DNA of 64,000 nucleotides from Crossaster papposus (taxonomy: Eukaryota > Echinodermata > Asteroidea > Velatida > Solasteridae). Each line of letters opens with the position of its first letter. Positions within the stretch are counted from its first letter, which is position 1. The translations under genes were made by a program, and so were the position numbers. Of this stretch, positions 12,191 through 62,409 are shown piece after piece. The notes below the pieces were generated by a model that made no database searches, was not told the origin of the DNA, and worked only from the letters and a program-made list of their open reading frames with translations. The stretch is from assembly GCA_037893245.1 (NCBI GenBank), contig JBAIAA010000238.1:1922001-1986000 (forward strand), read 5' to 3'.

Positions 12191-12395
12191 ATTTGGTGTC
12201 ATTGAGATTGCCTCGTTTACCACGGCACTCGCTTCTGAAAGCCGCGAAAGCCTTGTCACGAAGCGTGGTCAGATTATCACCATCAGCAGCCTTGATCATG
12301 GCGCTACACATCTTCCCTTGTACGGGTTGCAAAGAGAGAGAACTAAGAAACCCAAAAGCTAAAACCAACACTAACATTTTACGCGGGTTTTTCAT
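12191..12395 (-). CDS. orphan exon 1: signal peptide and propeptide-like segment
   Basis: ATG at 12395 opens a frame with a strong signal peptide: basic MKNPRK, hydrophobic LVLVLAFGFLSSLSL and a cleavage region near residues 22-27. A 41-residue segment with C30 and C57 and a CRGKRG motif follows. The frame can end two ways. A donor GTAAGTG lies after AAA T (phase 1), as in the other copies; if unspliced, the frame stops two codons later as a 70-residue secreted peptide. No FAMeT exon was found downstream (towards position 1), so this copy is cut off from its domain exons, unlike the copies at 23.7, 40.1 and 58.4 kb. Confidence 0.65.
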
Positions 12396-12557
12396 GTCCA
12401 GCCAGCACAGCAGTTCCTCACTTTGGTATCTGCGTCCAAAACAGAAACCGCACCACTCCCGTGTACGGTATGATGAGCATTGATCGCGTCTACAAAATTA
12501 CCGTTTGTCATCCTAGGTTTCCACAGTAACCGTAACAATAGCTATTGTGTGGAATTG

Positions 12558-15500
12558 GTTTGCACATTTTTCCAAAACGAAAACGTGTCCAAAATGGTGA
12601 AATTAAAACTAACAACAAATGTTTTGAAGAATGTTGAAGCACGGGTAAAACTCCATGTTTGTTCTTGAATAGATGAAGCCCCATAATTATGTAAACTAAC
12701 ACTGGTTACTTCGCCTCCAAATCGCATACGGTTCGTATACATATAACGCTAGCGAACAGGTCATTTCAGTATATACGCTCTGACGACGGGTAGAACATAC
12801 TGCCCGAAACGTTTCCTTCCGGTTCTTTTCAGAACCACACACATTTACAAAAGAGATTGAACACATGATGCTAGTGTATCGCAAACAATATTATTGCCTT
12901 TTCACCATGAATATCTTAAAATCTCCTCTAATCTACTGAGTTTTGCTAACCATTGCTTTTACTTTTAGTATTGCCTTTCTAATATCGATTTTTCTTACAA
13001 AGTGTATGGTTCTCGTTTTGTTATTTGAGAAACCAGTACGATCCTGCAGTTTCCCCGTTAGACAACGACTATAGTCGCAATTTTGGCCGCGTGGGATCAC
13101 TTAAGTTTAAAGTCGTCCCTCTTTAAATGTACTGAGTGGCTATCCCCCTCTCAAGAGTAAGTGTCTTATAAAAGCCACTTCAAAAAGAGTAAAATAAACT
13201 AAGTTCAGAGTGAAAATAACTCTGACCAACAAAAGTAAAAACAACTTCAAAAGATTTATTAATCTCTGTAGATTAGGAGTAATTTATATTTTTACGAAAA
13301 TTATGAAAATAACAACTATAGTATAATCATTATATATCAAAGTACATTGTGTATGTGTGGGTCTGTAGAAAATACCCGACAGGTTAAATTTCTGATTATG
13401 ATAGATTCAATCTGCAAAAGTAATGGAAACAAATCACATACAAAAATGTAGTGGGACTCCCCCCAAAATACTGAAGTTAAAATGAGGGTGTACTAAGAAG
13501 GAACAACAAAAACTTGCATAAATCGGTACACAATAGGCTTATGCAACAAAATAAGCAAATCGAAACCCCAAAACTGAATTCCCTGGGCCTTTCAACTGCT
13601 AGAAAACCGCAAACACGCTTGATCATTACCACACGCTATCAAGCGGCCAGCCCGTTGAGCTTTGGATACATAACGCAATTTATTATATAATAGCCTATTG
13701 TGTAATATACTTCTGACAACCAAACACATGGTACTTCTAGCGTTTCAATCCGTTCGGCTTCCAATAGACACAATTAACGGTGCCTTAAGGATTGGTAGAT
13801 CAGACAGGATCGGAAGTAGGGGTTCCGCTAACTTTCTGTTCCGAATTTTGAAATGGTGCCTTAGGTGTCGGAAATACGTGTCTTTTAATAAAAATTGTGC
13901 ATTTAAAACCAAAATAATTAATGTGTTTTCCAAAGGTTGAATTTGGTTAAATTATTTATGGGTGTTAGTTAGAGTCCCAATAAATAAACACATTCGGCTA
14001 CAATTTGCTTGTTAACACAGTACATGTACAATCACTATGGTTATAACAATCACTATGTTCAAAGACCTGTCATTCCCCATCAAATTGTGAAAATAAAATA
14101 CTATGATTTTAAATTAAAACAATAACATTGCACATTATATAAGACTATAAATATTATTAGACAAAACAAAATAGAACAAGACAAGACAAGACAAACAACA
14201 AAACAAGACACGACACAATGCCTTAAAGCACACACTACTATTAAAGCCAAACTAACGAAAAAACAGGATGTATCACATGGGCAAAACATAACACTAAAAC
14301 AATATACTGCAAGACAAAACAAGACAGGGAAAACACAAAGACAAACAAACCTGCCACCTAATTACACGAGACAACAACAAACAAACAATTGTGTGGAAGA
14401 TTTCGGCTGTGTAGATCCAACGAATGACACTGTCCGTTACTAAACCGCAAACACATTCCATCCATTGAGTAATCCTGAATCTCCCAAAAAATTGGCACAC
14501 AAATTAATAAATTTTCAATTCCTAACAGTCCTCTGACAAAATAATGCTCACAGTGATGATGAACTATCATGTTAAATGCATCAAGCGAAAGGCAATAAGC
14601 GATAAATGAGTGGAAAAGCGAAACACGAGTACAAAACCAAAATGGTACATCTTACACAACGAAATCAAAGTGACTTTTACTCGGCTGATCGTATAATATA
14701 TTATTCCATTTCTAGCCTCGAGCTACAATGTATGATTCCTTCTAATACGTTATCTCTATTTTAATGAATAAATGTCAAATAATGCACGCCATAAATACGT
14801 GCAGCTCTCTATAACAAGGTGTCTACTCTACTGCTATACATGGTTAATATACAGGGTGTATCCCAAAAACGTTTTGTAAATCCTTTTACATAGGTTGATA
14901 GACAATGGTGCAGTGCTTTTTGTGCAATTGCACATACTCTACATGTAACGCATAAGTAAGCACATGCTAATTACGTAAATTGCGATACATCTGTTTTGCG
15001 CGAAAAAGTGCTGTGTTGAAAACAGGATCTGAGACCCTGAGAAGCAATGCATATATTAACAGTGCTCGATGTGTCCTTACAGCTAGATTTAATAGTACAG
15101 AAAACTACTGTTCTAAGTGTTCTATAAGTATACACCCAATTCCAGACATTACCTCACCCAAATTCCAAGTGTGGTTGTGGGCCCACTTAACCAATGTATA
15201 ATGTGTAATTCCCCAAAACACTGAAATATATTGTATACACTTAGAACAATTTTCGTTTCGAATTTTAATATTTGTGCCTTAGGTGTCGGAAATACGTGTC
15301 TTTTAATAAACATTGTGCATTTAATACAAAATAATTAACGTGTTTCCCAATCCTAAGACAGAAGTTGATAAGTACATCTATGTGTGCCCTTCTTGAACTC
15401 GTTATCAACCACCCTCATTTTCCACCCGCCCGCTTTTAGTTGGTTTCTCGCTATCTTGGTTTCTTCCATAACTAGTGACTTCCATAAGCACACGTGTGAA

Positions 15501-15660: not shown

Positions 15661-15989
15661 TTAGGCACAGAATTGATTAAACACCCAGTCCGCTGGTTCT
15701 TGGCCCCAAGAACTGATACCAACGTAGACCGGGGTCGATATGTTGCGACGATGATGCGCAGCGGCGTCCCACTCCAGGAAAGCCTCCTCCTGTCCTCCTT
15801 TGCCGACAGTCACCACGCCCCGTTTGTACTCTACCCAGAAGGGGCGACGTTCAGTGCCACTGACGATACCTGCCTCGTGGTAGTGTGAACGCCCACCAAA
15901 ATACATACCAGGGCATTCGGGTGCGGAGGGTGGGGGAGGGTAGTAACAGGCTCGGATACCCGATTCCAAGTTCCACCAGCCACCTAGAA
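15661..15989 (-). CDS. gene A exon 3: C-terminal half of FAMeT domain
   Basis: The exon begins after the acceptor ttttttctatag (phase 1) and ends at a TAA at 15661-15663. It encodes LGGWWNLESGIRACYY, then CPGMYFGGRS, then AGIVSGTERRPFWVEYKRG and VVTVGKGGQEEAFLEW, ending in WVFNQFCA. The order IGGW-N-SxI, RPFW, GxxxVGKGG and F-EW is the signature of the Methyltransf_FA family (farnesoic acid O-methyltransferase domain). Despite the name, the family's function in animals is unsettled, and a binding role is as likely as catalysis. With exon 2 this makes a complete domain at the C-terminus of the protein. The exon is intact, although exon 1 of this gene has lost its start. Confidence 0.85.
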
Positions 15990-16722: not shown

Positions 16723-16881
16723 CTATTGAGGCAAAGACGGACGCTTCTGTATTTGCCTCCGCCAGATTTATTGTGGCATCACGGACTGTCTTCACATCGA
16801 AGTCCAACCGAAACGGCGCCCTCAGCGGCTGCAAGATGAACGTGACACCTTGGGTGGACGCCTCCAAAGTGAACGAGCAAG
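16723..16881 (-). CDS. gene A exon 2: N-terminal half of FAMeT domain
   Basis: 159 bases between the acceptor gtgtcacacag and the donor GTGAGC. It starts in phase 1 (matching the exon 1 donor) and ends in phase 1 (matching exon 3). It encodes CSFTLEASTQGVTFILQPLR, then APFRLDFDVKTVRDATINLA and a short linker. F-x-VK followed by AxINLAE corresponds to the first beta-strands of the Methyltransf_FA domain, whose second half begins with IVLGGW in exon 3. Copies of identical length sit at 29789 and 52392. Confidence 0.78.
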
Positions 16882-17545: not shown

Positions 17546-18545
17546 GGGAACTAAGCCTGCGCGAGTTTCCTTCACGAAAATCACAATGGAGAAACTATCG
17601 AAAAAGTCGGTTTTTTTTGCATCTATCGTCATTGTAAGAATACTTTTCAATATATTTCTTAGTTCTGTTAGCATAACGAAGCTAAGATACTCTACTTTCA
17701 GAAAATATTAAATATAATGAAATCTTTAATCATTAAGGCTCGCTGATTTCATGATAAAAGTCACATTTTCCGTAAAAATCGGTCTCATTTCCTGTGTAAA
17801 GTCCTTTTTTGTACAGTAACTCCCGACTTCAACTCGTCATAAAAATAAATAGCGCCACCGCACGTCTTAATTCTAAAGAGTGAATCTTCAGCAAGCCTTT
17901 GCCGAACTAACAATGTAACAATCATTTTGATTGGTTTAGGATAACACTCGCGGATCTTTCTTTAAACAAAAACTATCCATTCAAACCTAGCGTTTCTCGA
18001 GAGCCTGACCTGCTTGGCTAGTCTTTTCGCATGCGCAATTTAGTACACGCTTCCGTAGGCGCGCGAACGTACGTACACACACGTACACATCGTAAACAGG
18101 ATGTAAGAGTTGTTAAGACTGCTAGGAGACTACATCAATCGGCGGGAGAAGTGAAAGGTTGGAACGTTCGTCTCGATCGCTGTATATTTTGGGCCAAATT
18201 GTGAGTAAGTCCTTCTGATTTTTGTTACAATTTTGTAATCATATTGTAGTTTAAGTTATATACAACAAAAGTATGTAATTTGTGTTAGCCAATTTCACCG
18301 TATAATCAATAGTTTGAGGAAAGAAAATTACCACGTGAAAAAGGCAAGTACGTGCGTGTACGTACACTGATGAATGGCTTATTCCATTTCCAATCAGAAG
18401 GGGGTAAACACGATACTTCACCCATTTTGCTCGATCGTGTTGGCAGCTCAGTGTATTCATTATCGTTTGTCACCAGAGTTAAAATTTAAATACAAGTTCT
18501 GTTTGTTAATTATTTTAACATTGTCATTTTTTTTCTCGGTCATAG
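17546..18545 (+). other. upstream region of the plus-strand 18-21 kb gene
   Basis: A non-coding first exon may end at 18200, where CAAATT is followed by GTGAGTAAG, a good donor. The stretch 18050-18200 is richer in GC and contains alternating purine/pyrimidine ACGTACGTACACACACG. No ATG in a useful frame precedes the donor, so translation would start in later sequence. The ORF from the ATG at 18374 runs through into the next exon without a stop and is an alternative start. Confidence 0.4.
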
Positions 18546-18817
18546 AAGTGAAGCTTCGTGAGAAGGCCAGCATCAACTACCGTCAACTCCATCAGGGGCC
18601 GAAGTTGTCTTCAGCAGCCACACGTGAACGGTGGTCAACATCGAAGTTGTGGCGGTTTGAAATTGTTGAGGAGAGGGAAGATGAAGTGAAAGTTCATTGG
18701 GAGGGATGGCCAGCTACTTATGACCAGTGGATTTCTAGAGATAGTGTCGTTGATGTACCTGATGCTACTGTCCAGGCCGATGCTTTCAGTCATCTGACAA
18801 ATCAGCTGTACATTCAG
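18546..18817 (+). CDS. exon encoding chromo-barrel/Tudor-knot-like domain
   Basis: The exon lies between the acceptor ttttttctcggtcatag and the donor GTAAGATC and ends in phase 0. It encodes 90 residues, with RERWSTSKLWRFEIVEERED, then VKVHWEGWPATYDQWISRDS. The V-x-V-HW-GW-YD-WI pattern is the hallmark of chromo-barrel/Tudor-knot modules, which bind methyl-lysine or RNA in chromatin factors. The next exon is 19216-19575. The gene lies within intron 1 of gene A, on the opposite strand. The start codon is uncertain (ATG at 18374 if unspliced). Confidence 0.7.
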
Positions 18818-19215
18818 GTAAGATCAAGAATTTAGTTTCAACTAAACTCTGCATGGTGACAAGTCGTCAAGTATTATCTATGATGAAAAAAATGACAAAA
18901 TGGGTATATGATGAAGCAAAACTAAAAAAGTTCAATTACCGATTACAAGGCCTTTATTTAAAAAAAAAATATTTTGGGATTCTGGTTTAATACGTCAAAG
19001 TATAGGCTATTATTGTGAAACAAACACTGTTAATCGAGTTTCAGTGATTCTACAAAGTACAATGGAATCAGCTTCATCATCCCCCCATTGTACTCTTATT
19101 TCATGAGATCGTGGAGGAATCTCATGTGCGATCGACTGCAGGAGAAAAATATTATAAATGAGTTAATGAAATGCAAGATTCTAAATTTATATTTCATTTC
19201 TTGGTTTCCATTCAG

Positions 19216-19575
19216 GTCCAGGAGCAATTGACTACTGCAAGACGTTCTGACTCGGAGATCACCATCCGGATTCCTGTCCAGAGAGAAAATTTTGACGACT
19301 TCTGCGAGAAAGCAGGACTAGTGGAGTCAGGATCGAGATTTCGTATAAGAGACTATTCCCTTTTTGCACAGCGTCTTGGAGAAGATTGGGATGTACGGGT
19401 GTCCAATGATGCTGGGGACCATGCATGGGTCAACTTGGACACGTTGACCATTTGGATTCAGGAACGTCGTCCACTGGTGACATATACACGCACTCTGAAG
19501 AAGAAACTTGTTCATCGTGGTTACAACTTGGTTATGCGTTTTGTTAAGGATTATGGGAATCGGTTGGACTTGCAG
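19216..19575 (+). CDS. second coding exon of the chromo-barrel gene
   Basis: Exactly 120 codons between the acceptor tttccattcag and the donor GTAATT, phase 0 at both ends. The sequence begins VQEQLTTARRSDSEITIRIP and includes FDDFCEKAGLVESGSRFRIR and WVNLDTLTIWIQERRP. It ends with VMRFVKDYGNRLDLQ. No named domain is recognised. Codon use and the exact-multiple-of-three length support real coding. Confidence 0.7.
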
Positions 19576-19622
19576 GTAATTTGAAAAACTTCCTTGTCGA
19601 CTTAACATCTCAAGCAGTCATC

Positions 19623-20531
19623 ATGGCAAGTATTTTTTCTCCAACATTGATTCTGTTATTATGCCTTGCCGCAACCCTAGTAGTTTCCTTGCCTAATTCT
19701 AATGATTGGTTGTTGCCCCTAAATAAGTTTGCTCTCCATGAAACAGTATTGTCTTCTTGCCCCAATAGAAAATCTGCATCCTTTGATAATACTGTCGCAG
19801 ACTCGGTTCTGATTAAAATTTTAGAAACAAATGGAATTTCCGAAAATGATGTAAACCAGCCCACACTGAGTCAACAAATACTTAAAGGTGTACGAGTAAT
19901 GATAAGTAAATTGAAAGTCGAAAGTAGAAAAGGGGGTTATGCTGCCTCTAAGTTGCTTGGCACGTGGAAGGATAGTGTGTTTAACCTAAAACTAGGGGGG
20001 GGGGGGAAACGTAAACTTGAAGATGAACTCTCTAGAGAAAAGAAACGAAGGAAGATTTGTGAGGAGGAAATTGCTAATCGAAGGAAAAAGATCAAAACTA
20101 TGGAAAAAGAAAGAAATGATGTAGTACGGAAACTAGTTAAGAAGACTAAGAAAGCATCACGAAAAAATGGGTCAAAAAAAGAATACTCTAAACGGTACAT
20201 AAAACGAATGAAAAAAAATCTGGTTGAAACCTCTAATGCAACAGTTGTTCTGTTGCAGTCCATCGGCTTAAAGGTGACAACTCTCTGTGTATCAGATAAG
20301 TTTGGTAATAAAGTGGATCTGAAATATGGTACGGAACTTAAGAAAAAAGATATGCAACTCTCAATCAACAAAGCCCTACATCTAAAAGATAGCCTCTGCA
20401 TATCTGACCGCAGTTACAGAAAACTCTCAAAAAGTTTGAATCAACTTCCGAGTTTAAAACAGCTAAAAAAACGAGCAAAAGAGATAGATGCCATTTTCCC
20501 TGTGTATACATATAATGGAATGATTATATAA
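19623..20531 (+). CDS. third coding section: basic coiled-coil region
   Basis: Open from an ATG at 19623 (frame open from 19581) to TAA at 20529. It contains LHETVLSSCPNRKSASFDN, then AASKLLGTWKDSVF and a long charged helix with KRKLEDELSREKKRRK and KKIKTMEKERNDVVRKL. The first residues, IFSPTLILLLCLAATLVVSL, look like a signal peptide. They may instead be the pyrimidine-rich 3' end of an intron: an acceptor at cctaaataag (exon from 19728) joins the previous exon in phase 0. A G(10) run at about 19997-20006 lies within the frame, so length errors there would shift it. Likely one protein with the exons before and after; family not named. Confidence 0.55.
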   Translation: MASIFSPTLILLLCLAATLVVSLPNSNDWLLPLNKFALHETVLSSCPNRKSASFDNTVADSVLIKILETNGISENDVNQPTLSQQILKGVRVMISKLKVESRKGGYAASKLLGTWKDSVFNLKLGGGGKRKLEDELSREKKRRKICEEEIANRRKKIKTMEKERNDVVRKLVKKTKKASRKNGSKKEYSKRYIKRMKKNLVETSNATVVLLQSIGLKVTTLCVSDKFGNKVDLKYGTELKKKDMQLSINKALHLKDSLCISDRSYRKLSKSLNQLPSLKQLKKRAKEIDAIFPVYTYNGMII

Positions 20532-20541
20532 TATATATAAT

Positions 20542-21210
20542 GGCAGCCTCTTAATCAAAAGCTTCAAGTTGTAATTGACCAAATGAGTAGGATTTGTAAG
20601 GGACCTTTCTATACCATGGTCATTTTATACCTCTAAGGAATCTGCTCAAATTCAGTATCGAGATTTTACTGGTCCTGAGCACATCAAGGTCCAAAAACAC
20701 ATCAATCTTGATAATCTCATTTCTTGGCATCCCAAAACACATCAAATAAAGTGGCTATGGAAAGAATTCCGTGATATAATGACCCTCATGAAATCTGAAA
20801 ATGTAGATCCAGAAGCAGTTGAAACTCGTGCTAGAGATTGGGTGTCGAATTATGCTGAAACTTTCCAAGCTAAAGATGTCACACCCTATATGCACACATT
20901 CATGAACCATGTTTCCGAATCGCTCAAACTGCACGGACCAATAAACAACTTAAGCCAACAAGCTATGGAAAAATTGAATGATAAAGTAACATCCCTCTTC
21001 TTTCGGGCAACCAACCACAGGAATACCGAGGCTTTTATTCAAGTCATGCAGAAACAAAACAGAATATCACACCTCGACCAGTGGTGTCAAGATGACCTGG
21101 AATATCATGTACATTGTAGTAGGTGTGGTGGGGTAGATCATAACAAACGCACATGTCATTTAAAATACCACCCGTTAAACAATGTAGTTCTGGAAGATGA
21201 AGAACTTTGA
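20542..21210 (+). pseudogene. C-terminal section with zinc knuckle, one frameshift
   Basis: Frame one, from 20542, reads QPLNQKLQVVIDQMSRICKG and stops at 20634. The sense continues in another frame from about 20620 (SFYTSKESAQIQYRDFTGPE) to TGA at 21208. The tail contains PYMHTFMNHV, then QAMEKLNDKVTSLFFRATNH and the knuckle CSRCGGVDHNKRTC (C-x2-C-x4-H-x4-C). The PYxHxxxxH...EKLND...NHR arrangement is seen in uncharacterised, often transposon-like, invertebrate proteins, and such knuckles are common in transposases. One indel separates the frames: assembly error, decay, or an unrecognised short intron. Confidence 0.55.
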
Positions 21211-23740: not shown

Positions 23741-23936
23741 ATTTGGTGTCGTTCAGATTGCCTCGATTACCACGGCACTCGCTTCTGAAAGCCGCGAAAG
23801 CCTTGTCACGAAGCGTGGTCAGATTATCACCGGCAGCAGCCTTGGTCATGGCGCTACACATCTTCCCTCGTACGGGTTGCAAAGAGAGGGAACTAAGAAA
23901 CCCCAAAGCTAAAACCAACACCGAAATTTTACGCGG
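23741..23936 (-). pseudogene. gene A exon 1, start codons lost
   Basis: Homologous throughout to the intact exon 1 at 40064-40268. Both Met codons of the signal peptide are gone: the initiator ATG is replaced by TTTAA-type sequence, giving a stop just upstream in frame, and the second ATG has become ATT TCG. The remaining frame reads VLVLALGFLSSLSLQPVRGK, then CRGNRGN and a phase 1 GTAAGTG donor. The dibasic GKR of the other copies is GNR here. An upstream in-frame ATG was not found, so gene A probably cannot make a secreted product from this exon. Its domain exons at 16.9-15.7 kb are still open. Confidence 0.7.
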
Positions 23937-23944
23937 TTTTTTTT

Positions 23945-26900
23945 AAATTTCCAGCCAACAGTTCCGCGCTTTGATATCTGCGTCAAAACAGAAACTGCAC
24001 CACTCCCGTGTACGGTATGATGAACATTGATCACGTCTTCGAATGTACCGTTTGTCATCCTAGGTTTCCACAGTAACCGTAACATTAGCTATTGTGTGGA
24101 TTTGGTTTGCATGGAAGTCAATTTATTAAATGTCGTTCACAATTCTCCAGCCTAACTGCCGTTTTTATAACGAGATACTCGCCGATCGATAAGCGTCTGT
24201 CATTTGCCTGCAGGTAATAAACGGGCGGGTTTCATTTCTGGACGTCGCCTCGTGTTTGCGGGAGCAAATAAAAAAACCACATGTTTTAGGGCCATGCCTT
24301 TTTTTTTTAAAGGAAGGAGTCAGCCCTTTTCCCCCTTTTTTTTTCTTATTCAAAATGGCCGCCCGACACATTTTAATGCAAGTCATGTAGTGAACATGTC
24401 ACACCCTATCTTTCTATTTGAAATTAAAGCATAGCTCACCCACGTTTACAATTCAAAATTCATGTGGGTCGATCATGTATGCACCATACACGTCACACCC
24501 TAGCCTTCCCATTAGACAAAATATATTTTCACAACATGTAAACTAGTGATGTACACAAGTCTAAATAACGATCTTTAAATGTAATTATCTTCTTTCTCTT
24601 TTTTTCAAAAACATATTATTGATAACTCTTCTGTGGTCTAGTCAAGTAATTGTAGCGGACCATACTCACGTAAATTAAGGGGGAAGAAATGAGGAACGGT
24701 CCTCTACTTAAAGCATTTAACAAAATTTGCAATAAACCAGAGACTATGTATATTGACGACTATCTCCTGCATATAATTTTACAAGACAACACTTATTACA
24801 TTAAATGCACAGTATTAGGGCCTAACTATGCCCGTATTACAATAAAATGGCACAGCAATACAACATGACATGCAAATGCCAACACATGGCTAGCTGTATA
24901 GCCTACACGGTGTACTATACGCACGGTACAATCTGACAATACAATTATTCAATAATGAAATACACGGTCGCGAATAATTACAATGATCTCACAAAAAATA
25001 TCAAACAAATTACATTACTCACTATAGGGGTTTCAATGATAGTTACCCTCTCACATGGTTTACATTTTAGAGCATGGCCGGAGCCATGCTCCCTAGAAAA
25101 TCGAGAGAATTTATAGACCTAATAATGTTGGTTTTCTCTGTTCGAAGCCCACAGAAGAAAACCTTGCTACAAGTTGCCTTTGCGCGGGAAGCACAAAGGT
25201 CACCTTATGTGTTTTGTACAAACATGCAAATCAATAATTGCAAAACTTTTATGCATACACAAACAGAGGGCGCACTTGGTCTCCCTACATAATCATAATG
25301 TATGCTGCCAACAATAATTCCCAAAGACAACAAAGGTGTCCAAAATGGTGAAACTAAAACTAACAAACAATATTTTGAAGAATTTCAAATCACGGGTAAA
25401 ACTTGAATAGATGAAGCCCCATAATTATGTAAACTAACACTGGTTACTCCGCCTTCAGATCGCATACGGTTTGTATACGTATAACGCTAGCGAACAGGTC
25501 ATTTCAGTTTATGCTCTGTCGACGAGTAGAACATACTGCCCGAAACGTTGAGTTTCCTCTTTCAGAACCACACACATTTACAAAAGATATTGAACACGTG
25601 GTGCTTTAGTACCACAAAACAATCTTATTGTCTTTTCACCATGCAAACCCTCAAATTTCATCTAATCTACTGAGTTTTGCTAACCTTTGCTTTAGTATTG
25701 CCTTTCTAATATCGATTTTTCTTACAAAGTGTATGGTTCTAGTTTTGTTAGTCGCAATTTTGGCGGCGTGGTATCACTTACGTTTGAAGTCGTCCCTCTT
25801 TAAATGAGTGGCTATATAGCAATTAAAAGATTAAATTTCTGATTTTAATAGAACCAATCTGCAAAAGTATTGGGGAAAAATCACATTAAAAAAATGTAGT
25901 GACTCCAAAGAAAATCCTGAAGTTCAAAGTAGATGTAGTGAGAAGGAACAAAAACCACTTGCTGAAGTCGGCACAAAATAGGCTCATGCAACAAAATAAG
26001 CAAATCAAAACCCTCAAAACTGAATTCCCTGGGGCCTTTCAACTGCTAGAAAAACCGCAAACAGGCTTGATCATTACCGCACGCTGTCAAGCGGCCAGCC
26101 CGTTGAGCTTTGGATAACGCAATGTATTATAATAGCCTATTGTGTAATATACTTCCGACAACCAAACACATGGCCTTCTAGCGTTTCAATCCGTTCGGCT
26201 TCCAATAGACACAATTAACGGTGCCTTAACGATTGGTAGATCAGACAGGATTGGAAGTAGGGGTTCCGCTAACTTTCTGTTTCGAATTTTGAAATGGTGC
26301 CTCAGGTGTCGGAAATACGTGTCTTTTAATAAACATTGTGCATTTAAAACAACATTAATTAATGTGTTTCCCAAAGTTTGATTTTGGTTAATTTATTTAT
26401 GGGAGTTAGAGTCCCAATAAATAAACACATTCGGCTACAATTTGCCTGTTAACACAATACATGTACAATCACTACCATATAACAATCACTATGTTCAAAG
26501 ACCTGTCATCCCCCATCAAATTGTGAAAATAAAATACTATGATTTTAAACTAAAACAACAACATTGCACATTATATAAGACTATAAATATTAGACAAAAC
26601 AAAATAGAACAAGACAAGACAAGACAAACAACAAAACAAGACACGACACAATGCCTTAAAGCATCACACTGCATGTACTATTAAAGCCAAACTAACGAAA
26701 AAACAGGATGTATCACACGGGACAAAACATAAAACTAAAACAATATACTGCAAGACAAAACAAGACAGGGAAAACACAAAGACAAAAAAACCTGCCACCT
26801 AATTACACGAGACAACAACAAACAAACAATTGTGTGGGGGATTTCGGCTGTGTAGATCCAACGAATGGCACTGTCCGTTACTAAACCGCAAACACATTGT

Positions 26901-28126: not shown

Positions 28127-28446
28127 TTAGGCACAGAATTGATTGAACACCCACTCCGCTGGGTTATGGTCCCAAGAACGTATACCAACGTATACCGGCG
28201 TTGATATGTTGCGACGATGATGCGCAGCGGCGTCCCACTCCATGAAAGCCTCCTCCTGTCCTCCTTTGCCGACGGTCACCACGCCCCGTTTGTACTCTAC
28301 CCAGAAGGGGCGACGTTCAGTGGCACTGACGATACCTGCCTCGTTGTATTCTAAACGCCCACCAGACAACATACCATGGCATTCGTTTGACTCGGTGTAG
28401 TAACAGGCTTGGATAGCCGACTTAGAGTTCTCCCAGCCACCTATGA
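28127..28446 (-). CDS. gene B exon 3: C-terminal half of FAMeT domain
   Basis: Acceptor ttttttctcctttag, phase 1, and stop TAA at 28127-28129. It encodes IIGGWENSKSAIQACYY, then AGIVSATERRPFWVEYKRG and VTVGKGGQEEAFMEWDAAAH, ending in WVFNQFCA. All family hallmarks are present and nothing interrupts the frame. With exon 1 (40064-40268) and exon 2 (29789-29947) it gives a 227-residue secreted protein: signal peptide, 42-residue linker with two cysteines, and one FAMeT domain. This is the only gene of the array complete within the window. The 10 kb first intron holds the foldback and non-LTR elements. Confidence 0.85.
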
Positions 28447-28494: not shown

Positions 28495-28640
28495 GCGGAG
28501 CCCAGAAAGGTCACTGACATAACTGCCTCGATGTGAGTCTGAACGCCCATTCAACAACTTGTGGCATTCTAGTGAGTCATTGTGGAAACAGGCCCGGGTG
28601 ACCGACTTAACTTCTGTCCAGCCCAGCCGTCAATAGCTGG
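28495..28640 (-). pseudogene. decayed extra copy of FAMeT exon 3
   Basis: Acceptor-like ctctttcatcatccag precedes ATT GAC GGC TGG, matching IGGW. A duplicated GCTGG then shifts the frame. In the shifted frame, TEVKSVTRACF, then SLECHKLLNGRSDSH align with NSKSAIQACYY and NECHGMLSGGR of exon 3. The RPFW/VGKGG part is missing. The same lesion is present in the copies at 53.4 and 62.5 kb, so decay preceded the array's last expansion. Confidence 0.65.
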
Positions 28641-29788: not shown

Positions 29789-29947
29789 TTATTTGGGCAA
29801 AGATGGACGCTTCTGTATTTTCCTCCGCCAGACTTATTGTGGCAGTTTTGCGTGTCTTAACATCAAAGTCCAACCGAAAAGGCGCCCTCAGCGGCTGCAA
29901 GATGAACGTGATACCTTGGTCGAGAGCCTCCGAAGTGAACGAGCAAG
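29789..29947 (-). CDS. gene B exon 2: N-terminal half of FAMeT domain
   Basis: 159 bases, acceptor gtgtcacacag, donor GTGAGT, phase 1 at both ends. It encodes CSFTSEALDQGITFILQPLR, then APFRLDFDVKTRKTATISLA. Splicing to exon 3 rebuilds the I-I-G-G-W strand. The frame is intact. The preceding donor in phase is exon 1 at 40064, 10.1 kb upstream on the minus strand. Confidence 0.78.
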
Positions 29948-34315: not shown

Positions 34316-34590
34316 TGTGTACATGTACATGTACATGTACATGTACATGTACATGTACATGTACATGTACATGTACATGTACATGTACATGTACATGTAC
34401 ATGTACATGTACATGTACATGTACATGTACATGTACATGTACATGTACATGTACATGTACATGTACATGTACATGTACATGTACATGTACATGTACATGT
34501 ACATGTACATGTACATGTACATGTACATGTACATGTACATGTACATGTACATGTACATGTACATGTACATGTACATGTACATGTACATAT
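34316..34590. repeat. (ACATGT)n hexamer array 1
   Basis: About 45 near-perfect copies of the self-complementary hexamer ACATGT. Every frame on both strands stays open (YM, HV or CT dipeptides), so the long frames here are artefacts. It can extrude as a cruciform or hairpin. Confidence 0.95.
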
Positions 34591-34626
34591 AAATGTTCGC
34601 GGCATTTTGTTATTATTTTTGAATAA

Positions 34627-34697
34627 AAAAATGCCGAGGACACTTAATATATAAAATATTTACGTGGACCCACTCTTAAATGTCCTCGGCATTTTTG
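34627..34697. repeat. perfect 16-base inverted repeat around a 38-base linker
   Basis: AAAAATGCCGAGGACA is followed by a linker with CTTAATATATAAAATATT, and then TGTCCTCGGCATTTTT. The same hairpin lies at 35538-35608 and 38060-38130. It is the junction of two foldback-element termini. Confidence 0.85.
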
Positions 34698-35279
34698 TAT
34701 TATTTTTCATTATGAAAGGACCTGGTAAGCAAGTAACCAACATTGAAATATTTTTTCTTTATATTGCCCGTTGCCATGGTAACAGGCCATTTTGTGTTTT
34801 GGGCATTTTTAGCCAGACGCAAAAACATTTTTTTTGCTTATTTAAAAAAAAACACCCAGCCAAAATACAAATGTTATCACAAAATCAACTATATCATTAC
34901 AAAGTATCACCCTTACTTGAGAAAAAAAATTATAGCATGTTTTCAGAACTTGTAAAATTGTAATTTTTGACTCCCACTCTCTAAAATCCTGAAAAAACAG
35001 AATATTTTATTTAAACAAATTTTCAATACGTAAGCAAAATTGTTTCCTTTGAGAAGTTGAGTAAAGATCCTAAAAAAAATATTAAAGAAATTAATTGCAA
35101 AGGTGCAAACGTCCTGAATTTATGACCAGAGAAATTCAGGATTTTTTTCTTTAAGGGTATCGTTGTCGTCATTTTCAAAATACCAAACGGATTCTGCCCT
35201 CAAAACTTGTAGGCAAGAGATGACCCTAATATGTACCGAAAAGTCTTTCATTTTCACGAATAACACGTTTGATGATACA

Positions 35280-35500
35280 ATGTGTACATGTACACGTACA
35301 TGTACATGTACACGTACATGTACATGTACACGTACATGTACATGTACACGTACATGTACATGTACACGTACATGTACATGTACACGTACATGTACACGTA
35401 CATGTACATGTACATGTACATGTACATGTACATGTACATGTACATGTACATGTACATGTACATGTACATGTACATGTACATGTACATGTACATGTACATA
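35280..35500. repeat. hexamer array 2 (ACATGT with ACACGT variants)
   Basis: About 37 hexamers. The first half has regularly spaced ACACGT variants every two or three units, the second half is pure ACATGT. The partner array is 37922-38020. Confidence 0.95.
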
Positions 35501-35591
35501 TAAATGTTCGCGGCATTTTGTTATTATTTTTGAATAAAAAAATGCCGAGGACACTTAATATATAAAATATTTACGTGGACCCACTCTTAAA

Positions 35592-37921: not shown

Positions 37922-38020
37922 ATGTGTACATGTACACGTAGGCCTACATGTACATGTACATGTACATGTACATGTACATGTACATGTACATGTACATGTA
38001 CATGTACATGTACATGTACA
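37922..38020. repeat. hexamer array 3, contracted
   Basis: About 16 ACATGT hexamers with one interruption (GTAGGCCTACA). It is the duplicate of array 2, shortened by about 120 bases. Confidence 0.95.
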
Positions 38021-38113
38021 TATAAATGTTCGCGGCATTTTGTTATTATTTTTGAATAAAAAAATGCCGAGGACACTTAATATATAAAATATTTACGTGG
38101 ACCCACTCTTAAA

Positions 38114-40063: not shown

Positions 40064-40268
40064 ATTTGGTGTCGTTCAGGTTGCCTCGTTTACCACGGCA
40101 CTCGGTATTGAAAGCCGCGAAAGCCTTGTCACGAAGCGTGGTCAGATTATCACCGGCAGCAGCCTTGATCATGGCGCTACACATCTTCCCTCGTACGGGT
40201 TGCAAAGAGAGGGAACTAAGAAACCCCAAAGCTAAAACCAACACCAACATTTTACGCGGGTTTTTCAT
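40064..40268 (-). CDS. gene B exon 1: signal peptide and Cys-containing segment
   Basis: The ATG at 40268 opens MKNPRKMLVLVLALGFLSSL. The signal peptide is about 22-27 residues, followed by C30, an acidic/helical stretch (GDNLTTLRDKAFAAF), C57 and the RGKRGN dibasic site. The exon ends AAA T before the GTAAGTG donor (phase 1). The next phase 1 acceptor on the same strand in this gene order is exon 2 at 29947, which contributes a third Cys at position 70. If the intron is retained, translation ends after 70 residues. An upstream in-frame ATG at 40355 exists but precedes a poor signal, so 40268 is preferred. Confidence 0.72.
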
Positions 40269-42366: not shown

Positions 42367-43377
42367 TCACAATGGTACCATCTCAATGCCAACTCTATTA
42401 TTGCCCCGCCTTTTGAAAAAGGCTACTTTAAGACCCTGTCTAAATTTCTTGTATTTCAACTCATAGATGATTGGATTAATGACAGAGTTTCAATAGAAAA
42501 AAAATGCTAAGATTCCGCCGATATATACATTAGTCTCTGAATGACAGTATGGCAAAGGACTAGTGTCTGTGCGAAACAAGCAAAGGAAGACAGTTATGTA
42601 GTCTGGTGTCCATAGGACGATAATAGCTCCCAAGACGATTGTGAGTGTGGTGACCAGACGCTGTCTAGCAATCACAAGATCACATGCTGCTGCACTCGCG
42701 TGTTCCAATCTGAGAGCATCGGCTTGCCTTTTCAGAGTTCGTTGCATCTTGTAGGAGGCCCAAACCATCAGTGTTATAGGCAGCAAGTAACCGAAGAGAA
42801 ACGAATACAACGTAAGCAAAATTAAAGATGTCAGATCAGGGTATTTGATATCTGAGCAAGCCTTGTCTGGATCAGTGCTGGCTTTAATTGTAAATGAAAA
42901 CGGTAACGAACTCAGAAATGATATCACACAGATTAGAGCAACCAGCGTTTTCATCCGTGTTGCTGTGAGTGTCATGGCGTAGTGCAGCGGGTACACAATA
43001 GCGACATATCTGTCCAGTGTTACCAAACAGAGATTGTAAGCTGATGCATAGCTCAAAGCCCAATTTAAACACCTTGAGACCAAAAGTCGGCAGAAAATGT
43101 CTTTACCACCACTGCTTGTTGGCACAAGAGCAACGAGTGCACAGTCTGAAGACGTCAGATAAGTGACCACCTCTTGTAGACATAGCAGCATATCGGCCAC
43201 AGCCAAATTTACCAGCAGATGGTTTGTCATGTTGTGCAGGAATTTGACGCGTAGAATGACGAAGCACACTAAGAGGTTTCCTAAGACACCGATGGCTCCT
43301 TCCGCAACTAACAAGTGACAGACCCATTTGCTTCCTGTATGCCCCTCATTGTCAACAAATGGCTGAGTTGAATTCAT
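42367..43377 (-). pseudogene. rhodopsin-like (class A) GPCR with an in-frame TGA in TM7
   Basis: The ATG at 43377 begins a 295-codon frame. TM1 has GNLLVCFVIL, TM2 has NLAVADMLLC, and TM3 ends in DRYVAIVYPLHY, the DRY motif. TM4 is LVALICVISFLSSLPFSF, TM5 contains LLTLYSFLFGYLLPITLM, and TM6 has VLGAIIVLWTPDYITVFL. The frame meets TGA at 42490-42492, but the same frame continues at once with NSVINPIIYELKYKKF, the NPxxY motif and helix 8, to a normal stop at 42367. So one nonsense codon interrupts an otherwise complete 336-codon single-exon receptor. Ligand unknown; invertebrate amine/peptide-like orphan class. Pseudogene, null allele or sequence error are all possible. Confidence 0.85.
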
Positions 43378-43432
43378 GGCTGACACTTCTGTTGAGAACT
43401 TGTCCGTGAAATTCCCGTGTCTTTAAAACACT

Positions 43433-51558: not shown

Positions 51559-51878
51559 TTAGGCACAGAATTGATTGAACACCCACTCCGCTGGTTCATG
51601 TTCCCAAGAACTTATACCAACGTATACCGGCGTTGATATGTTGCGACGATGATGCGCAGCGGCGTCCCACTCCAGAAAAGCCTCCTCCTGTCCTCCTTTG
51701 CCGACGGTCACCACGCCCCGTTTGTACTCTACCCAGAAGGGGCGACGTTCAGTGCCACTGACGATACCAGCCTCGTTGTATTGTGAACGCCCACCAAACA
51801 ACGTTGGAGGGCATTCGTTTTCCTCGGTGTAGTAACAGGCTTTGATAGCCGACATCGAGTTATACTAGCCACCTATGA
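51559..51878 (-). pseudogene. gene C exon 3, with a TAG in the FAMeT domain
   Basis: Same borders as gene B exon 3 (acceptor tttttttatatag, stop TAA at 51559). The conserved IGGW has become I-I-G-G-stop: TGG is TAG at 51865-51867, codon 126 of the spliced message. After it, SAIKACYYTEENECPP, ERRPFWVEYKRGVVTVGKGG and WVFNQFCA are intact. A translated product would end before the second half of the domain. Confidence 0.8.
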
Positions 51879-52391: not shown

Positions 52392-52550
52392 TAATGTTGG
52401 CAAAGACGGACGCTTCTGTATTTTCCTCCGCCAGATTTATTATGGCATTATTGCGTGTCTTCACATCGTAGTCCAACCGGAAAGGCGCCCTCAGCGGCTG
52501 CAAGATGAACGTGATACCTTGGGCGGACGCCTCCAAAGTGAACGAGCAAG
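52392..52550 (-). CDS. gene C exon 2: N-terminal half of FAMeT domain
   Basis: 159 bases, acceptor gtgtcacacag, donor GTGAGT. It encodes CSFTLEASAQGITFILQPLR, then APFRLDYDVKTRNNAIINLA. The exon itself is undamaged and in phase with exon 1 at 58350-58554. The gene is broken by the TAG in exon 3. Confidence 0.72.
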
Positions 52551-53339: not shown

Positions 53340-53660
53340 GTTTCGATGTTATGAACTTATAAATTGCGGAGCCCAGAAAGGTCACTGATATAACTGCCGC
53401 GATGTGAGTCTGAACGCCCATCCAACAACTTGTGGCATTCTGGTGAGTCATTGTGGAAACAGGCCCGGGTGACCGACTTAACTTCTGTCCAGCCCAGCCG
53501 TCAATAGCTGGATGATGAAATAGTTTTAAACAACATTTTCGGTGTGGTATATGAAGCCCAGCAATGTCTCTGTGATTGTCCAACCTGATTATAGGCTTTA
53601 ACTGAGGTAAAGACCTCATTGATACCTCGTGTCTCGCAGAGAAACGCGACGGGGACGACA
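53340..53660 (-). pseudogene. decayed extra FAMeT exon 3, copy 2
   Basis: Carries the same GCTGG duplication frameshift and the same truncation as 28495-28640: GCTGGGCTGGACAGAAG, then SVTRACFHNDS- and ECHKLL-type residues in the shifted frame. In this copy it lies upstream of exon 2 rather than between exons 2 and 3. Confidence 0.6.
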
Positions 53661-53998: not shown

Positions 53999-54003
53999 GT
54001 ATG

Positions 54004-55148: not shown

Positions 55149-55706
55149 GCCTGCGAAAACTGTCAATAAGTACAGATTTGCTGATGTGCTATCGTTTCTT
55201 GATCCACACCTCAAGGACCGAGAGTGAGTTGAAATAATTTGTTTTACTTTTTAAACTTCTGATTAGAGTGTTTGGGGAGAATTGGTGGCGATAAAAGCAG
55301 CTTCCCCGGTTGTTTCTTTTCATCTGTTTGAGAATTGTTTTGTAATTGTATTAATTTGTTTAGGTCTTCAAGTAATGTACAACTTGAGGATTCATACATC
55401 ATTGATCTATTTGGCAACATTGATGAGGAGCCAGACATTGCTGAGAAACCAGGCAGATATGGAGGAGCCCCATTGGTGCAAGTCCCGGAGGAACAAATAC
55501 ATGTACCAGACGTCCCATGTGTGTCACCATCCTTGCCGATGCAATCATCATCCCCACAAAAGAGAAAACTTGCAGCAGGCGTAGAACTAGATAGGTGTAT
55601 TTTGGATTATCTGGAAAACAGGCAAGATCTTAAAGATGTCAAAAAGTTGTCAAAAATTCCTGATGACATTGATCAGTTTGTTAAGGCTATGGCCGTATCT
55701 GTCTAA
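55149..55706 (+). pseudogene. truncated MADF gene, copy 2
   Basis: Begins mid-exon at TGCGAAAACTGTCAATAAG. The first exon is only the C-terminal 25 codons of MADF (to 55223). The last exon (55364-55706) matches the first copy apart from rare substitutions. It cannot encode a complete MADF domain. Confidence 0.75.
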
Positions 55707-55801
55707 GCTTTGCCCCAAAGAAAAAGGGAAGAGGTCAAGTTCAAAATTCAAAGTACATGTATATATATATATATTTTTTAAAATTTATTTATTTAGGTTA
55801 A

Positions 55802-56163
55802 AGGTAGGATACACCATTTGCAGATATCGAAAATATTTACTACCGAATTATTAAGAAATATCTTACTCATTTGAAAGTTAATAATGATTCTAGGCATCCA
55901 GCAAAATGATTGCACTAGAAATCCTGTAATTATTCAGAAAAACATAATTCGCCGGACGGCGATCGCGAAAAAACAAAGATAACATAAGAATAACTGCTCG
56001 GCGCCGGTTAAAAACAAACGCTGTTTTTTTTGCTTTTCTCGGCATTCATGATTGTAAAACTTCGGACAGGTCAGTTAAACGATATTTACTATGAAATACA
56101 ACCCCCCCCAAAAAAATACCCATTCATGATAATTCAAGCAATTACCAATGGTGTATCCTACCT
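55802..56163. mobile_element. TTAA MITE family 1 (duplicate of 9539-9900)
   Basis: Same ends and interior as the first copy; flanking TTAA at 55798 and 56164. It moved with the segmental duplication, not by transposition. Confidence 0.85.
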
Positions 56164-58349
56164 TTAACTCCACAATATGACAGAAAAGAAAAAAAAACGA
56201 AACACAAAAACAGTTGATTTAACCTGGGATAGCCCCCCAAAAAGCCAATTTTAAAACATTAAATACAAGGAAGACAAATATGCCCATTTAAAATATGACA
56301 TAAATATGTATAAGGGGCTCGTGCATTACAATCGTTGGTGTTAATGCTCAAACAAATGTCATTAATTAATTTAGTATTTTTGCTCTCGTCTATTTTGCTC
56401 TTGTTGTGTTTCTCTGTTGACATCCAACTAAGATTCATCTCCCCAAAAAGTTTACAAATACTCCTTTTTCAAAAATTCTACTCGTATAGTTAAATATCGA
56501 ACATGGATATTGTATTGTTTTTTCCTTTTTAACAAAGATTAAACCATTTGTTAAGGATTTCAACATTAATTTTTTGTATCACTTGCATTGAGGGCCTCTT
56601 TCTGTTTTTTCCCTTTTTCTTTTTTTTTTGTATTAAAAAAAACAACTTTTTACGTGTAATTTTCTTGGAAATTTGCTGATGGTTAAGATTCAATAATTGT
56701 TATAACCAGGAAAATGTAGAATTTTTGATGCTGATTTTAATGTTTTTTAAATATTTTATTGGTGGACTACAAAAGAGTTCTTTCACTTTTATTTATATAA
56801 AACAAACCATTTGTAAACAACTTGATGTTTATTTATTCATAACTTATTACCAAATATAGACTTGAAACTGTTTTCTGTTAAATAAAGATTTATGTTAAAT
56901 AAAACATTGTTAAATGTCCCAGTAATTCATATTTGTGATTTGTTTTAATAGACTTGCATGCATTGCAGTTTGATTGAACAAATATTTGGTTGACCTTTTT
57001 ATTTCTAAGGCAACTTACGTATGGTTATATAATACTCACCTGAGGCACAGAGCCAGTCGCTGTCTGGCCTCAATTATTGACCTCAGCTGAGTTGTCACAA
57101 GGTCAAAAATATGATCAAATTAATCTTCCGACATGCAAACATATTCATGATTCGAAAGTTCTCTTACTAGGGTGTTGAATTCACCCCGCTGTCGATTTTA
57201 AAGATTTTATGTACCCCGATTCGCTTTTTTACTTCTCTGTTGCCGCCGTCTTGATAAAAGTAACAAGCATCATCTTCTAAGTCTGTCATTTTAAACGGTT
57301 GTCATAGTTACACATTGGCCTTTAACGATTTATCGTATTTTTTTTCGCGTACAATGTGACCTGAATTACGATAGTTCGTGTTAGTGTTCGTTTTCCGTGT
57401 TCGTTATCGCGTTCGTTGTCGCTGCAGTGTGACCGGCCCTTAACTGACAATCATGGATGCCGAGAAAACAAAAAAAACGGCGTTCGTTTTCCGGCGTCGG
57501 TCAGTTATTCTTATGTTGTTCTTGTTTTTTTTTAGATCGCCGTCCGGCGATCGTGAATTATTTCCGCCGGGCGCCGGGCGGAGAGGGGGTATTGGGCGGT
57601 CACCCGATGTCCCGGCCATCGGAGACAAATCCCGGATGGCTCTTATCGATTAACCCATTGACCCATGACCTCATCTAGTTCCAGACACACCTCCCTCTCA
57701 TGATCCTCGGCGAGGTTTACCGATCTGATCATCGATGATGATCATGATCCTCCATCCGTCGGAAAATTAGGTTAAATACGCACTCTACACTACTGACTGG
57801 GTTAGGTTCGAATCATGGATGATTGAAAAGTGAGAACGAATGATATGAAAAATAGAGAACAAGAATCAGAAATTAAAAAAGTAAGAAAAAGAAGGGAATC
57901 AGACGATAATATTTACCGTATTGAAAATTGATGAAAAAAAACCTTCGTACAGAAATGGTGTATATAATGGCTTTCTATATTTACATTTAATAATTACAAA
58001 TTACATTTCTAAATTTAATACGGAAAAAACGCCTTTGCTTGATCCTTTTGAAAAACAAAAATAGTACTCGCCTTCTAATTTGAATTATTTTTCAATAATG
58101 TTGGCAATCGTGGCATTTTAAAAAATCTTGGGGTTTTTTCTTCCAAATTCTGTTAGAGGTTTAGACTCAAAAATCTTACATAATAGTCTTCTAATAAGAC
58201 TGTTTTATAGTGCCCGCCATGCTTAGCTCCCGATTTGTTATGTATATAGCAACATGCTAGAATAATTAACCACTAACAATTTCCAGTTTTCTCTGAATTC
58301 AGTTGGGCTTGGAATTGCAATTTTAATGAAGTGCTTAAGAATCACTTAC
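56164..58349. other. non-coding part of duplication copy 2
   Basis: Retrotransposon 3' fragment (56170-56300), AT-rich stretch, TTAA-element end (57300-57440) and GCGCCGGGCGGAGAG repeat section (57560-57720), in the same order as 9905-12190. No gene. Confidence 0.6.
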
Positions 58350-58554
58350 ATTTGGTGTCATTGAGATTGCCTCGTTTACCACGGCACTCGCTTCTGAAAG
58401 CCGCGAAAGCCTTGTCACGAAGCGTGGTCAGATTATCACCATCAGCAGCCTTGATCATGGCGCTACACATCTTCCCTTGTACGGGTTGCAAAGAGAGAGA
58501 ACTAAGAAACCCAAAAGCTAAAACCAACACTAACATTTTACGCGGGTTTTTCAT
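58350..58554 (-). CDS. gene C exon 1: signal peptide segment
   Basis: ATG at 58554. It has the same sequence as the orphan exon at 12191-12395 (MKNPRKMLVLVLAFGFLSSL; ECRGKRGN) and the same GTAAGTG donor in phase 1. The next FAMeT exon 2 downstream on this strand is 52550, 5.8 kb away. The exon itself is intact. Confidence 0.68.
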
Positions 58555-58716
58555 GTCCAGCCAGCACAGCAGTTCCTCACTTTGGTATCTGCGTCCAAAA
58601 CAGAAACCGCACCACTCCCTCATACGGTATGATGAGCATTGATCGCGTCTACAAAATTACCGTTTGTCATCCTAGGTTTCCACAGTAACCGTAACAATAG
58701 CTATTGTGTGGAATTG

Positions 58717-61700: not shown

Positions 61701-62083
61701 TTAGGTGTCGGAAATACGTGTCTTTTAATAAACATTGTGCTTTTAAAACAAAATAATTAACGTGTTTCCCAATCCTAAGACAGAAGTTTATAAGTACATC
61801 TATGTGTGCCCTTCTTCAACTCGTTATCAACCACCCTCATTTTCCACCCGCCCGCTTTTAGTTGGTTTCTCGCTATCTTGGTTTCTTTCATAACTAGTGA
61901 CTTTCATAAGCACACGTTGTGAAAATAACTGTGATGTTAACACGTCTCAGTCATCTACTGCACTGTAAAAGATTAAATTCCTGGCAGTTTAATGGGCGCC
62001 ACTATATTGTAACGGGACGAACTGTGCCCGCCTTTTCAACTTGTTATACATCACCCTCATTTCACCCGCGTGCTTTTGGTTTC
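58717..62083. repeat. array copy D, intergenic block
   Basis: Aligns with 12560-15660. It contains a private insert at 60121-60290 and the ACAAGACAAG-rich block at 60548. It keeps the empty site of the 47235 transposon at about 61135. No convincing gene. Confidence 0.7.
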
Positions 62084-62409
62084 TTAGGCACAGAATTGAT
62101 TGAACACCCACTCCACTGGGTTATGGTCCCAAGAACGTATACCAACGTATACCGGCGTTGATATGTTGCGACGATGATGCGCAGCGGCGTCCCACTCCAG
62201 GAAAGCCTCCTTCTGTCCTCCTTTGCCGACGGTTACCACGCCCCGTTTGTACTCTACCCAGAAGGGGCGACGTTCAGTGCCACTGACGATACCAGCCTCG
62301 TTGTATTCTGAACGCCCACCAAAAAACATATGAGAGCATTCGGCTGAGGGTGGATCAGAGATGTAACAGGCTCCGATAGCCGACTTCGAGTTATCCCAGC
62401 CACCTATGA
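62084..62409 (-). CDS. gene D exon 3: C-terminal half of FAMeT domain
   Basis: Acceptor tttttcctatag, phase 1; TAA at 62084-62086. It encodes IGGWDNSKSAIGACYISDPP, then HMFFGGRSEYNEAGIVSGTE and RRPFWVEYKRGVVTVGKGG, ending WVFNQFCA. Intact. The matching exon 2 is not found before 63389, where the array sequence is broken by unrelated DNA, and the expected exon 1 lies outside the window. Confidence 0.82.

What the first reader, a model, noticed from the sequence alone, without database searches (positions are those of the whole stretch)
12191..62409. A tandem array of secreted single-FAMeT-domain genes with phase-matched split exons
Four signal-peptide exons, three N-half and four C-half FAMeT exons alternate on the minus strand. 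Donor and acceptor phases match at every junction: AAA T before GTAAGT, CT TGC after the acceptor, then ATA G/A before GTGAG and TT or TC after. The joined gene B reads as a 227-residue protein made of signal peptide, short Cys-containing segment and FAMeT domain. I know of no well-characterised secreted family of this layout. Seen directly: the exons, their phases and the domain signature. Inferred: that the exons are joined across 6-10 kb introns.
Basis: partly seen in the sequence, partly recalled or inferred. Interest (0 to 1): 0.75.

Follow-up and report, generated by a model that had tools for sequence, protein, structure and literature searches.

The report
Sea star array of secreted FAMeT genes
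A probable sea star carries long arrays of small secreted-protein genes in which one conserved leader exon is shared by several different binding domains whose loops have diversified under selection, which looks like an inherited repertoire of recognition proteins.

Summary
Confirmed and extended. The window lies in a 1.02-Gb assembly whose mitochondrial contig uses the echinoderm code: probably a sea star. Its minus strand holds three-exon genes: leader (E1), FAMeT N-half (E2), FAMeT C-half (E3). On three contigs the order 1-2-3 recurs 71 times (shuffles: mean 10.9, maximum 20). Splice sites are kept in 19 of 19 gene sets read. Probes allowing 3 mismatches count 216 leaders and 172 C-halves genome-wide.

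Two results go further. First, 15-19 positions of E3 and 9 of E2 show diversifying selection (pN 0.18-0.30 against 0.08 in the intron); the core is conserved. Second, the leader is shared: it also heads F5/8 type C genes (C113) and a distant FAMeT subfamily. Between the FAMeT subfamilies the domain exon is saturated (pS 0.75), the leader is not (pS 0.10), so leaders were exchanged or homogenised between arrays. Best reading: a secreted, lectin-like recognition repertoire. Expression and ligand are untested.

The parts
40064..40268 (-). Gene W2 exon 1: signal peptide plus 41-residue Cys-containing segment, ends in phase 1 before GTAAGT
29789..29947 (-). Gene W2 exon 2: N-half of FAMeT domain
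28127..28446 (-). Gene W2 exon 3: C-half of FAMeT domain and stop; W2 is the only complete, undamaged gene in the window
58350..58554 (-). Gene W3 exon 1 (leader), identical in DNA to the W0 leader
52392..52550 (-). Gene W3 exon 2, identical in DNA to W0 exon 2
51559..51878 (-). Gene W3 exon 3 with an in-frame TAG: probable pseudogene; W0 exon 3 outside the window differs at one base and is open
23741..23945 (-). Gene W1 exon 1 without a start codon (TAA in its place, second Met lost)
16723..16881 (-). Gene W1 exon 2
15661..15989 (-). Gene W1 exon 3, longest variable loop of the 19 sets read
12191..12395 (-). Gene W0 exon 1; its exons 2 and 3 lie left of the window at C238:1919293 and C238:1918477
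62084..62409 (-). Gene W4 exon 3; its exons 1 and 2 lie right of the window at C238:2017057 and C238:1991597
28512..28623 (-). Decayed partial copy of exon 3 in intron 2 of W2 (72.6% DNA identity over 117 columns)
53383..53494 (-). Decayed partial copy of exon 3 in intron 1 of W3 (71.8% DNA identity over 117 columns)

Best explanation
The array encodes small secreted proteins. Each has a cleaved signal peptide, a conserved 41-residue Cys-containing leader segment and one FAMeT domain. The FAMeT domain acts as a binding module, not an enzyme: a conserved scaffold carries a few loops (one between the Cys pair ACYY...EC in E3, one at SSW..EPAEW) that differ from copy to copy under diversifying selection. 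Tandem and segmental duplication multiplied the genes. Recombination kept one promoter-proximal and leader cassette nearly uniform across these arrays, a distant FAMeT subfamily and an F5/8 type C array. The whole set therefore behaves as a germline repertoire of secreted lectin-like recognition proteins, most likely in immune or mucosal defence. Shown: exon structure, copy number, order, splice phases, shared leader, selection pattern. Inferred: splicing in vivo, secretion, ligand binding, immune role.
For: Order 1-2-3: 71 triplets against shuffle mean 10.9, maximum 20. GT/AG and phase kept at all four junctions in 19 of 19 gene sets. 216 leader and 172 C-half pattern matches at up to 3 mismatches, 0 in the reversed controls. 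Selection: with variable columns defined without the tested pair, pN 0.176 against pS 0.094 in variable sites (p 0.009) and pN 0.034 against pS 0.063 elsewhere, 7 disjoint pairs, 14 of 18 genes. Split halves give pN 0.29-0.30 in variable E3 columns against intron-2 divergence 0.079. Shared leader: F5/8C by Pfam at 2.4e-13 and 8.5e-6 for two C113 exons, a phase-1-compatible acceptor in 6 of 6 copies read, the same AAAT/GTAAGT donor in 6 of 6 C113 leaders, leader plus flanks 84-86% identical between families. Leader exchange: domain pS 0.750 against leader pS 0.102 between the two FAMeT subfamilies. F5/8C is named as a carbohydrate-binding domain in sea star footprint proteins (PMC9382459 section 2.4). 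FAMeT may be no enzyme (PMC10015273, passages).
Against: No transcript, protein or expression data. The footprint paper says the role of the FAMeT domain in the adhesive is unknown, and I saw no ligand named for it. The structure model of E3 alone is too poor to use (mean pLDDT 49.4), so placing the variable sites on one face is not shown. Two of three complete genes in the window are damaged, so part of the array is decaying. Gene conversion can distort pairwise selection estimates, and pS is also raised in the variable columns (0.12-0.26). Diversifying selection also fits reproductive, adhesive or venom proteins.
Confidence: 0.45

Rival explanations
1. The proteins are structural or adhesive components: tube-foot glue, mucus, skeletal or other secreted matrix, like the FAMeT-bearing footprint proteins of sea stars and shell-matrix UP5 of abalone.
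For: FAMeT domains occur in Sfp1, 3, 4a, 5, 7 and 8 of sea star footprints, and galactose-binding or F5/8C domains in Sfp10 and Sfp11 (PMC9382459). Abalone UP5 is listed as secreted with methyltransf_FA (PMC6003135). Mussel genes with a FAMeT domain rise during shell repair (PMC8194122, passages).
Against: Those sea star proteins are multi-domain; here Pfam finds one FAMeT domain and nothing else. More than 170 closely related exons with loops under diversifying selection are not what I would expect of a matrix component (judgement).
Confidence: 0.25
2. Reproductive proteins such as egg-coat or seminal recognition factors, which also can diversify quickly.
For: Diversifying selection at few sites on a conserved scaffold.
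Against: A copy number above 170 would be unusual for gamete recognition (recalled); nothing here links the genes to gonad.
Confidence: 0.12
3. Prepro-protein family: the conserved leader is a pro-region removed at a furin-type site and only the variable domain acts, as in peptide families with conserved prepro regions (analogy recalled). This can be true together with any of the roles above.
For: R-x-x-R follows the second leader Cys in 26 of 28 leaders read (the site rule is recalled). The leader is shared by unrelated domains, and its mature part is under purifying selection between families (pS 0.128, pN 0.034).
Against: Two leaders read RGKQ. The FAMeT domain is a full domain, not a short peptide. 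Nothing shows cleavage.
Confidence: 0.3
4. A methyltransferase that makes methyl farnesoate, as the domain name says.
For: Only the Pfam name.
Against: A 2023 paper states that the capacity was never reliably shown in vitro and that a fruit fly mutant had unchanged hormone levels (PMC10015273, passages). The proteins here are predicted to be secreted.
Confidence: 0.02
5. Mostly dead or assembly-inflated repeats.
For: Two of three complete window genes are damaged. Copies on different contigs have equal scores, so leftover haplotypes are possible.
Against: In the capped best-150 lists, 149 of 150 leaders, 149 of 150 E2 and 142 of 150 PF12248 matches have no stop inside (such lists favour intact copies). 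Core sites are under purifying selection. PF04997 polymerase exons lie on three animal contigs (C355, C932, C24), as expected for three polymerases in an undoubled assembly; which is which was not checked.
Confidence: 0.08

Closest known systems
PF12248 Methyltransf_FA (FAMeT) domain proteins of arthropods
   Same: Same domain by curated profile (82.2 bits, cut-off 24.2)
   Different: The arthropod proteins described combine two FAMeT domains or FAMeT with DUF3421 (PMC10015273, passages); here one FAMeT domain behind a signal peptide and a Cys-containing segment without Pfam match, in very large arrays
Sea star footprint proteins Sfp1, 3, 4a, 5, 7, 8
   Same: Secreted sea star proteins with FAMeT domains; F5/8C is listed among the domains of the same secretion (PMC9382459)
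   Different: Multi-domain proteins (EGF, hyalin, WAP and others); no array or shared leader described in the parts I read
Haliotis UP5 shell-matrix protein
   Same: Secretory signal peptide plus methyltransf_FA (PMC6003135, one table passage)
   Different: Mollusc shell matrix; its sequence, leader segment and copy number were not compared
Expanded secreted recognition families such as snail FREPs or sea urchin 185/333 (recalled)
   Same: Large germline families, conserved scaffold, diversified parts
   Different: Different domains; no immune evidence here

Membership tests
PF12248 FAMeT domain family | Profile score above the curated cut-off | tested here: met
   82.2 bits against 24.2, residues 94-225, all within E2 and E3 of W2
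PF12248 FAMeT domain family | Farnesoic acid O-methyltransferase activity | not testable with these tools
   Activity doubted in print for the arthropod proteins (PMC10015273)
Sea star footprint proteins (Sfp) | Multi-domain architecture with EGF, hyalin, WAP or vWF domains beside FAMeT | tested here: not met
   Only PF12248 found at E up to 1 in the joined protein
Sea star footprint proteins (Sfp) | Expression in tube-foot adhesive glands | not testable with these tools
   No expression data
Secreted single-FAMeT layout (as abalone UP5) | Signal peptide plus one FAMeT domain | tested here: inconclusive
   One domain behind a signal-like N-terminus (mean hydropathy 2.33 over residues 7-21); no signal-peptide predictor was available
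Germline diversified recognition family | Many tandem copies | tested here: met
   172 C-half and 216 leader matches; arrays on C238, C125, C5
Germline diversified recognition family | Diversifying selection at a limited set of sites | tested here: met
   on 19 gene sets
Germline diversified recognition family | Variable sites form a ligand surface | tested here: inconclusive
   Model of E3 alone has mean pLDDT 49.4
Germline diversified recognition family | Induction or binding on microbial challenge | not testable with these tools
   none

The most novel reading that the evidence does not exclude
A promoter-proximal plus leader-exon cassette (about 200 bases upstream, the exon and the start of intron 1) has been passed by recombination among at least three secreted domain arrays of one animal: two FAMeT subfamilies 35-46% alike in protein and an F5/8 type C array. 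It gives about 200 diversified binding genes a common targeting and perhaps control module, so unrelated lectin-like domains work as one combinatorial recognition repertoire.
Probability: 0.35. Interest if true: 0.8.

Novelty: new variant of a known kind. Interest (0 to 1): 0.6.

Why it matters
What the FAMeT domain does is open. A family with a conserved scaffold and selected loops gives natural variants to test what the domain binds. The shared leader across unrelated domains offers a clear case of leader exchange between gene families, with a built-in clock: leader pS about 0.10 against saturated domain pS. If immune, it would add a large repertoire to echinoderm defence. The searches on this domain (I saw the listings and opened passages of five of the listed papers) listed no title about such an array; this covers open-licence papers only.

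Tried and rejected
Methyltransferase reading: set aside on the literature. Doubled assembly as the source of the copy number: PF04997 exons on three animal contigs speak against a general doubling, but local leftover haplotypes in the arrays remain possible. Leader without FAMeT on C113 first looked like an orphan; comparison of three stretches showed F5/8C exons. Structure of E3 alone: too poor, so no fold search was made. Solved-structure searches with the joined protein, the leader and a five-row profile gave nothing significant (best E 0.66). One scan of prokaryote contigs for intronless relatives: 56 pattern matches, none confirmed. A paper search on conserved prepro regions found nothing. 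Passages of the Acanthaster mitochondrial paper did not give the gene order, so the sea star assignment by order rests on recall, while gene positions and code were examined here.

Limits: genome searches score at most 150 candidates, and pattern searches list 100 places, so lists are lower bounds. The order test used coordinates typed: W1's leader was added by hand, ten E3 places were set approximately, one far E2 on C5 was left out, and leaders that appeared only later were not added. The selection tests used 19 gene sets chosen mainly for being compact or near the window. Broken W3 stayed and in the intron and leader averages, and was left out of the split-half, disjoint-pair and subfamily tests. 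W1's leader was left out. Three leaders and four domain exons of the distant subfamily were used.

Full report
What was checked. The window is C238:1922001-1986000 of an assembly of 1.02 Gb in 1841 contigs. tblastn with the three exon proteins finds on the minus strand four E1, three E2 and four E3 exons in the order described, plus short decayed E3 copies. The spliced middle gene W2 gives 227 residues with 6 Cys. The domain is PF12248 at 82.2 bits, the only Pfam family found at E up to 1 (on a joined protein whose leader came from a sister copy). Donors, acceptors and their phase 1 are kept at all four junctions in 19 of 19 gene sets.

Organism. Contig C1841 (16,330 bases) holds COX1, ND4L, COX2, ATP6, ND4 and ND5 on one strand and ND1 and ND2 on the other; 8 of 8 frames read with table 9 match their Pfam families. 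In COX1, AAA as Asn and AGA as Ser fit the conserved stretches (my reading). That is the echinoderm code, and ND2/ND1 inverted before COX1 is the sea star order as I recall it. I call the source a probable sea star.

The array. I took E1, E2 and E3 places on C238, C125 and C5 (94, 97 and 95 exons; capped lists, adjustments told under Tried and rejected). In nine same-strand clusters the labels mostly run 123123...: 71 full triplets against a shuffle mean of 10.9 and maximum of 20 in 2000 shuffles; 78 of 92 E1 are followed by E2 and 85 of 97 E2 by E3. Median introns are 7.3 kb (0.9-37 kb, 78 cases) and 0.83 kb (0.4-24 kb, 85 cases). Pattern counts with up to 3 mismatches are 216 for a leader core and 172 for an E3 core, with none in the reversed controls. 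PF04997 polymerase exons lie on three animal contigs, so the assembly is probably not generally doubled, but equal-scoring copies on different contigs mean that some leftover haplotypes cannot be excluded.

Damage in the window. W1 has TAA at the start position and no Met before the hydrophobic stretch. W3 has TAG early in exon 3, while its copy W0 (leaders 46 kb apart, third exons 55 kb apart) is open and differs from it by one base in 684 bases compared. Of three genes with all exons inside the window only W2 is intact.

Selection. Over 19 sets the ratio of dN to dS on mean differences is 0.61 for E1, 1.11 for E2 and 1.12 for E3. In E3 the change sits in columns 1-40 and 91-100, with columns 41-90 conserved. 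Intron 2, where alignable (138 pairs), differs by 0.079 on average, close to pS 0.083. When variable columns (three or more residues) are defined in one group of genes and tested in the other, pN is 0.29-0.30 in variable E3 columns and 0.23-0.26 in variable E2 columns, and 0.036-0.067 elsewhere. pS is also raised in those columns (0.12-0.26), so part of the excess may reflect older or less converted stretches. With seven disjoint pairs and columns defined without the pair, variable sites have pN 0.176 against pS 0.094 (Fisher p 0.009) and the rest pN 0.034 against pS 0.063; the N to S contrast between the two classes has p 6.5e-5. This is diversifying selection on a few sites of a kept scaffold. 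One variable stretch lies between two Cys (ACYY...EC).

The leader is shared. On C113 the leaders are followed not by FAMeT but by F5/8 type C exons: Pfam E 2.4e-13 and 8.5e-6 for the second and third exon (the latter just under its cut-off), while the first exon alone gave no Pfam match. The acceptor of the first exon can be read in phase 1 in 6 of 6 copies, and 6 of 6 C113 leaders keep the AAAT/GTAAGT donor. Of the 11 leaders that one search lists on C113 (8), C141, C1096 and C415 (1 each), 11 have an F5/8C exon downstream on the same strand within about 2-47 kb (paired by eye; one of them has another leader in between; only C113 was read as sequence). On C304, C61 and C937 the leader precedes a distant FAMeT subfamily, and on C198 the coordinates say the same. 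Other FAMeT arrays (C279, C465) show no such leader in the capped lists, so the pairing is probably not universal. Between the FAMeT and F5/8C groups the homology covers about 200 bases upstream, the exon and parts of the first 430 bases of intron 1. The mature leader segment is under purifying selection between groups (pS 0.128, pN 0.034), the signal peptide is not clearly so (pS 0.044, pN 0.078). Between the two FAMeT subfamilies domain pS is 0.750 but leader pS 0.102 (18 by 4 domain exons, 17 by 3 leaders). The simplest account is exchange or gene conversion of a leader cassette after the domains had diverged.

Mechanism. Steps shown: gene structure, multiplicity, selection pattern, leader sharing. 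Steps inferred: secretion, folding as a binding domain, ligand, role. Diversified loops, very high copy number and pairing of one leader with two kinds of presumed binding domain fit a recognition repertoire best (0.45). Adhesion or matrix is the main rival because sea star footprint proteins carry FAMeT and F5/8C domains (PMC9382459, passages and section 2.4). A pro-region cut at R-x-x-R (26 of 28 leaders) is compatible with either.

Known or new. The domain is known and its enzyme role is doubted in print (PMC10015273, passages). A secreted FAMeT protein is listed in abalone shell (PMC6003135, one table passage), and the domain is part of CPAMD8 (PMC9363628, passage). I saw no report of such arrays, of loops under selection or of a shared leader in the searches named under Why it matters. 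I file it as a new variant of a known kind: an expanded, diversified secreted family.

Noticed in passing
42490-43422 (-): Open frame of a rhodopsin-type GPCR (7tm_1, E 2.4e-35) lying between two array genes.
   Followed up: partly
1667-3190 (+): Reverse transcriptase open frame (RVT_1, E 1.3e-35), LINE-like.
   Followed up: partly
18374-21210 (+): Chromo-like fragment (below its cut-off) followed by open frames of 140, 327 and 207 aa without Pfam match.
   Followed up: partly
8889-11301 and 55151-57563: Direct copies 99.2% identical, beside leader copies about 46 kb apart: a recent segmental duplication inside the array.
   Followed up: partly
34372-39844: Repeated blocks 98.5-99.5% identical with long simple-repeat runs.
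   Followed up: no
G000:C8 (5.3 Mb contig), e.g. L021: Bacterial-like contig: open COX1-family frame of 682 aa and RNA polymerase frame of 1407 aa without introns; symbiont or contaminant.
   Followed up: no
G000:C238:1067086/1071046 and 1092006/1094781; C191:2255396/2257707; C567:1498760/1500692; C225:1447244/1451176: Pairs of leader exons 2-4 kb apart, possible alternative first exons.
   Followed up: no
G000:C474, C121, C704, C853, C561, C18, C224: Further groups of exons 53-67% like the C113 F5/8C first exon; their leaders were not looked at.
   Followed up: no
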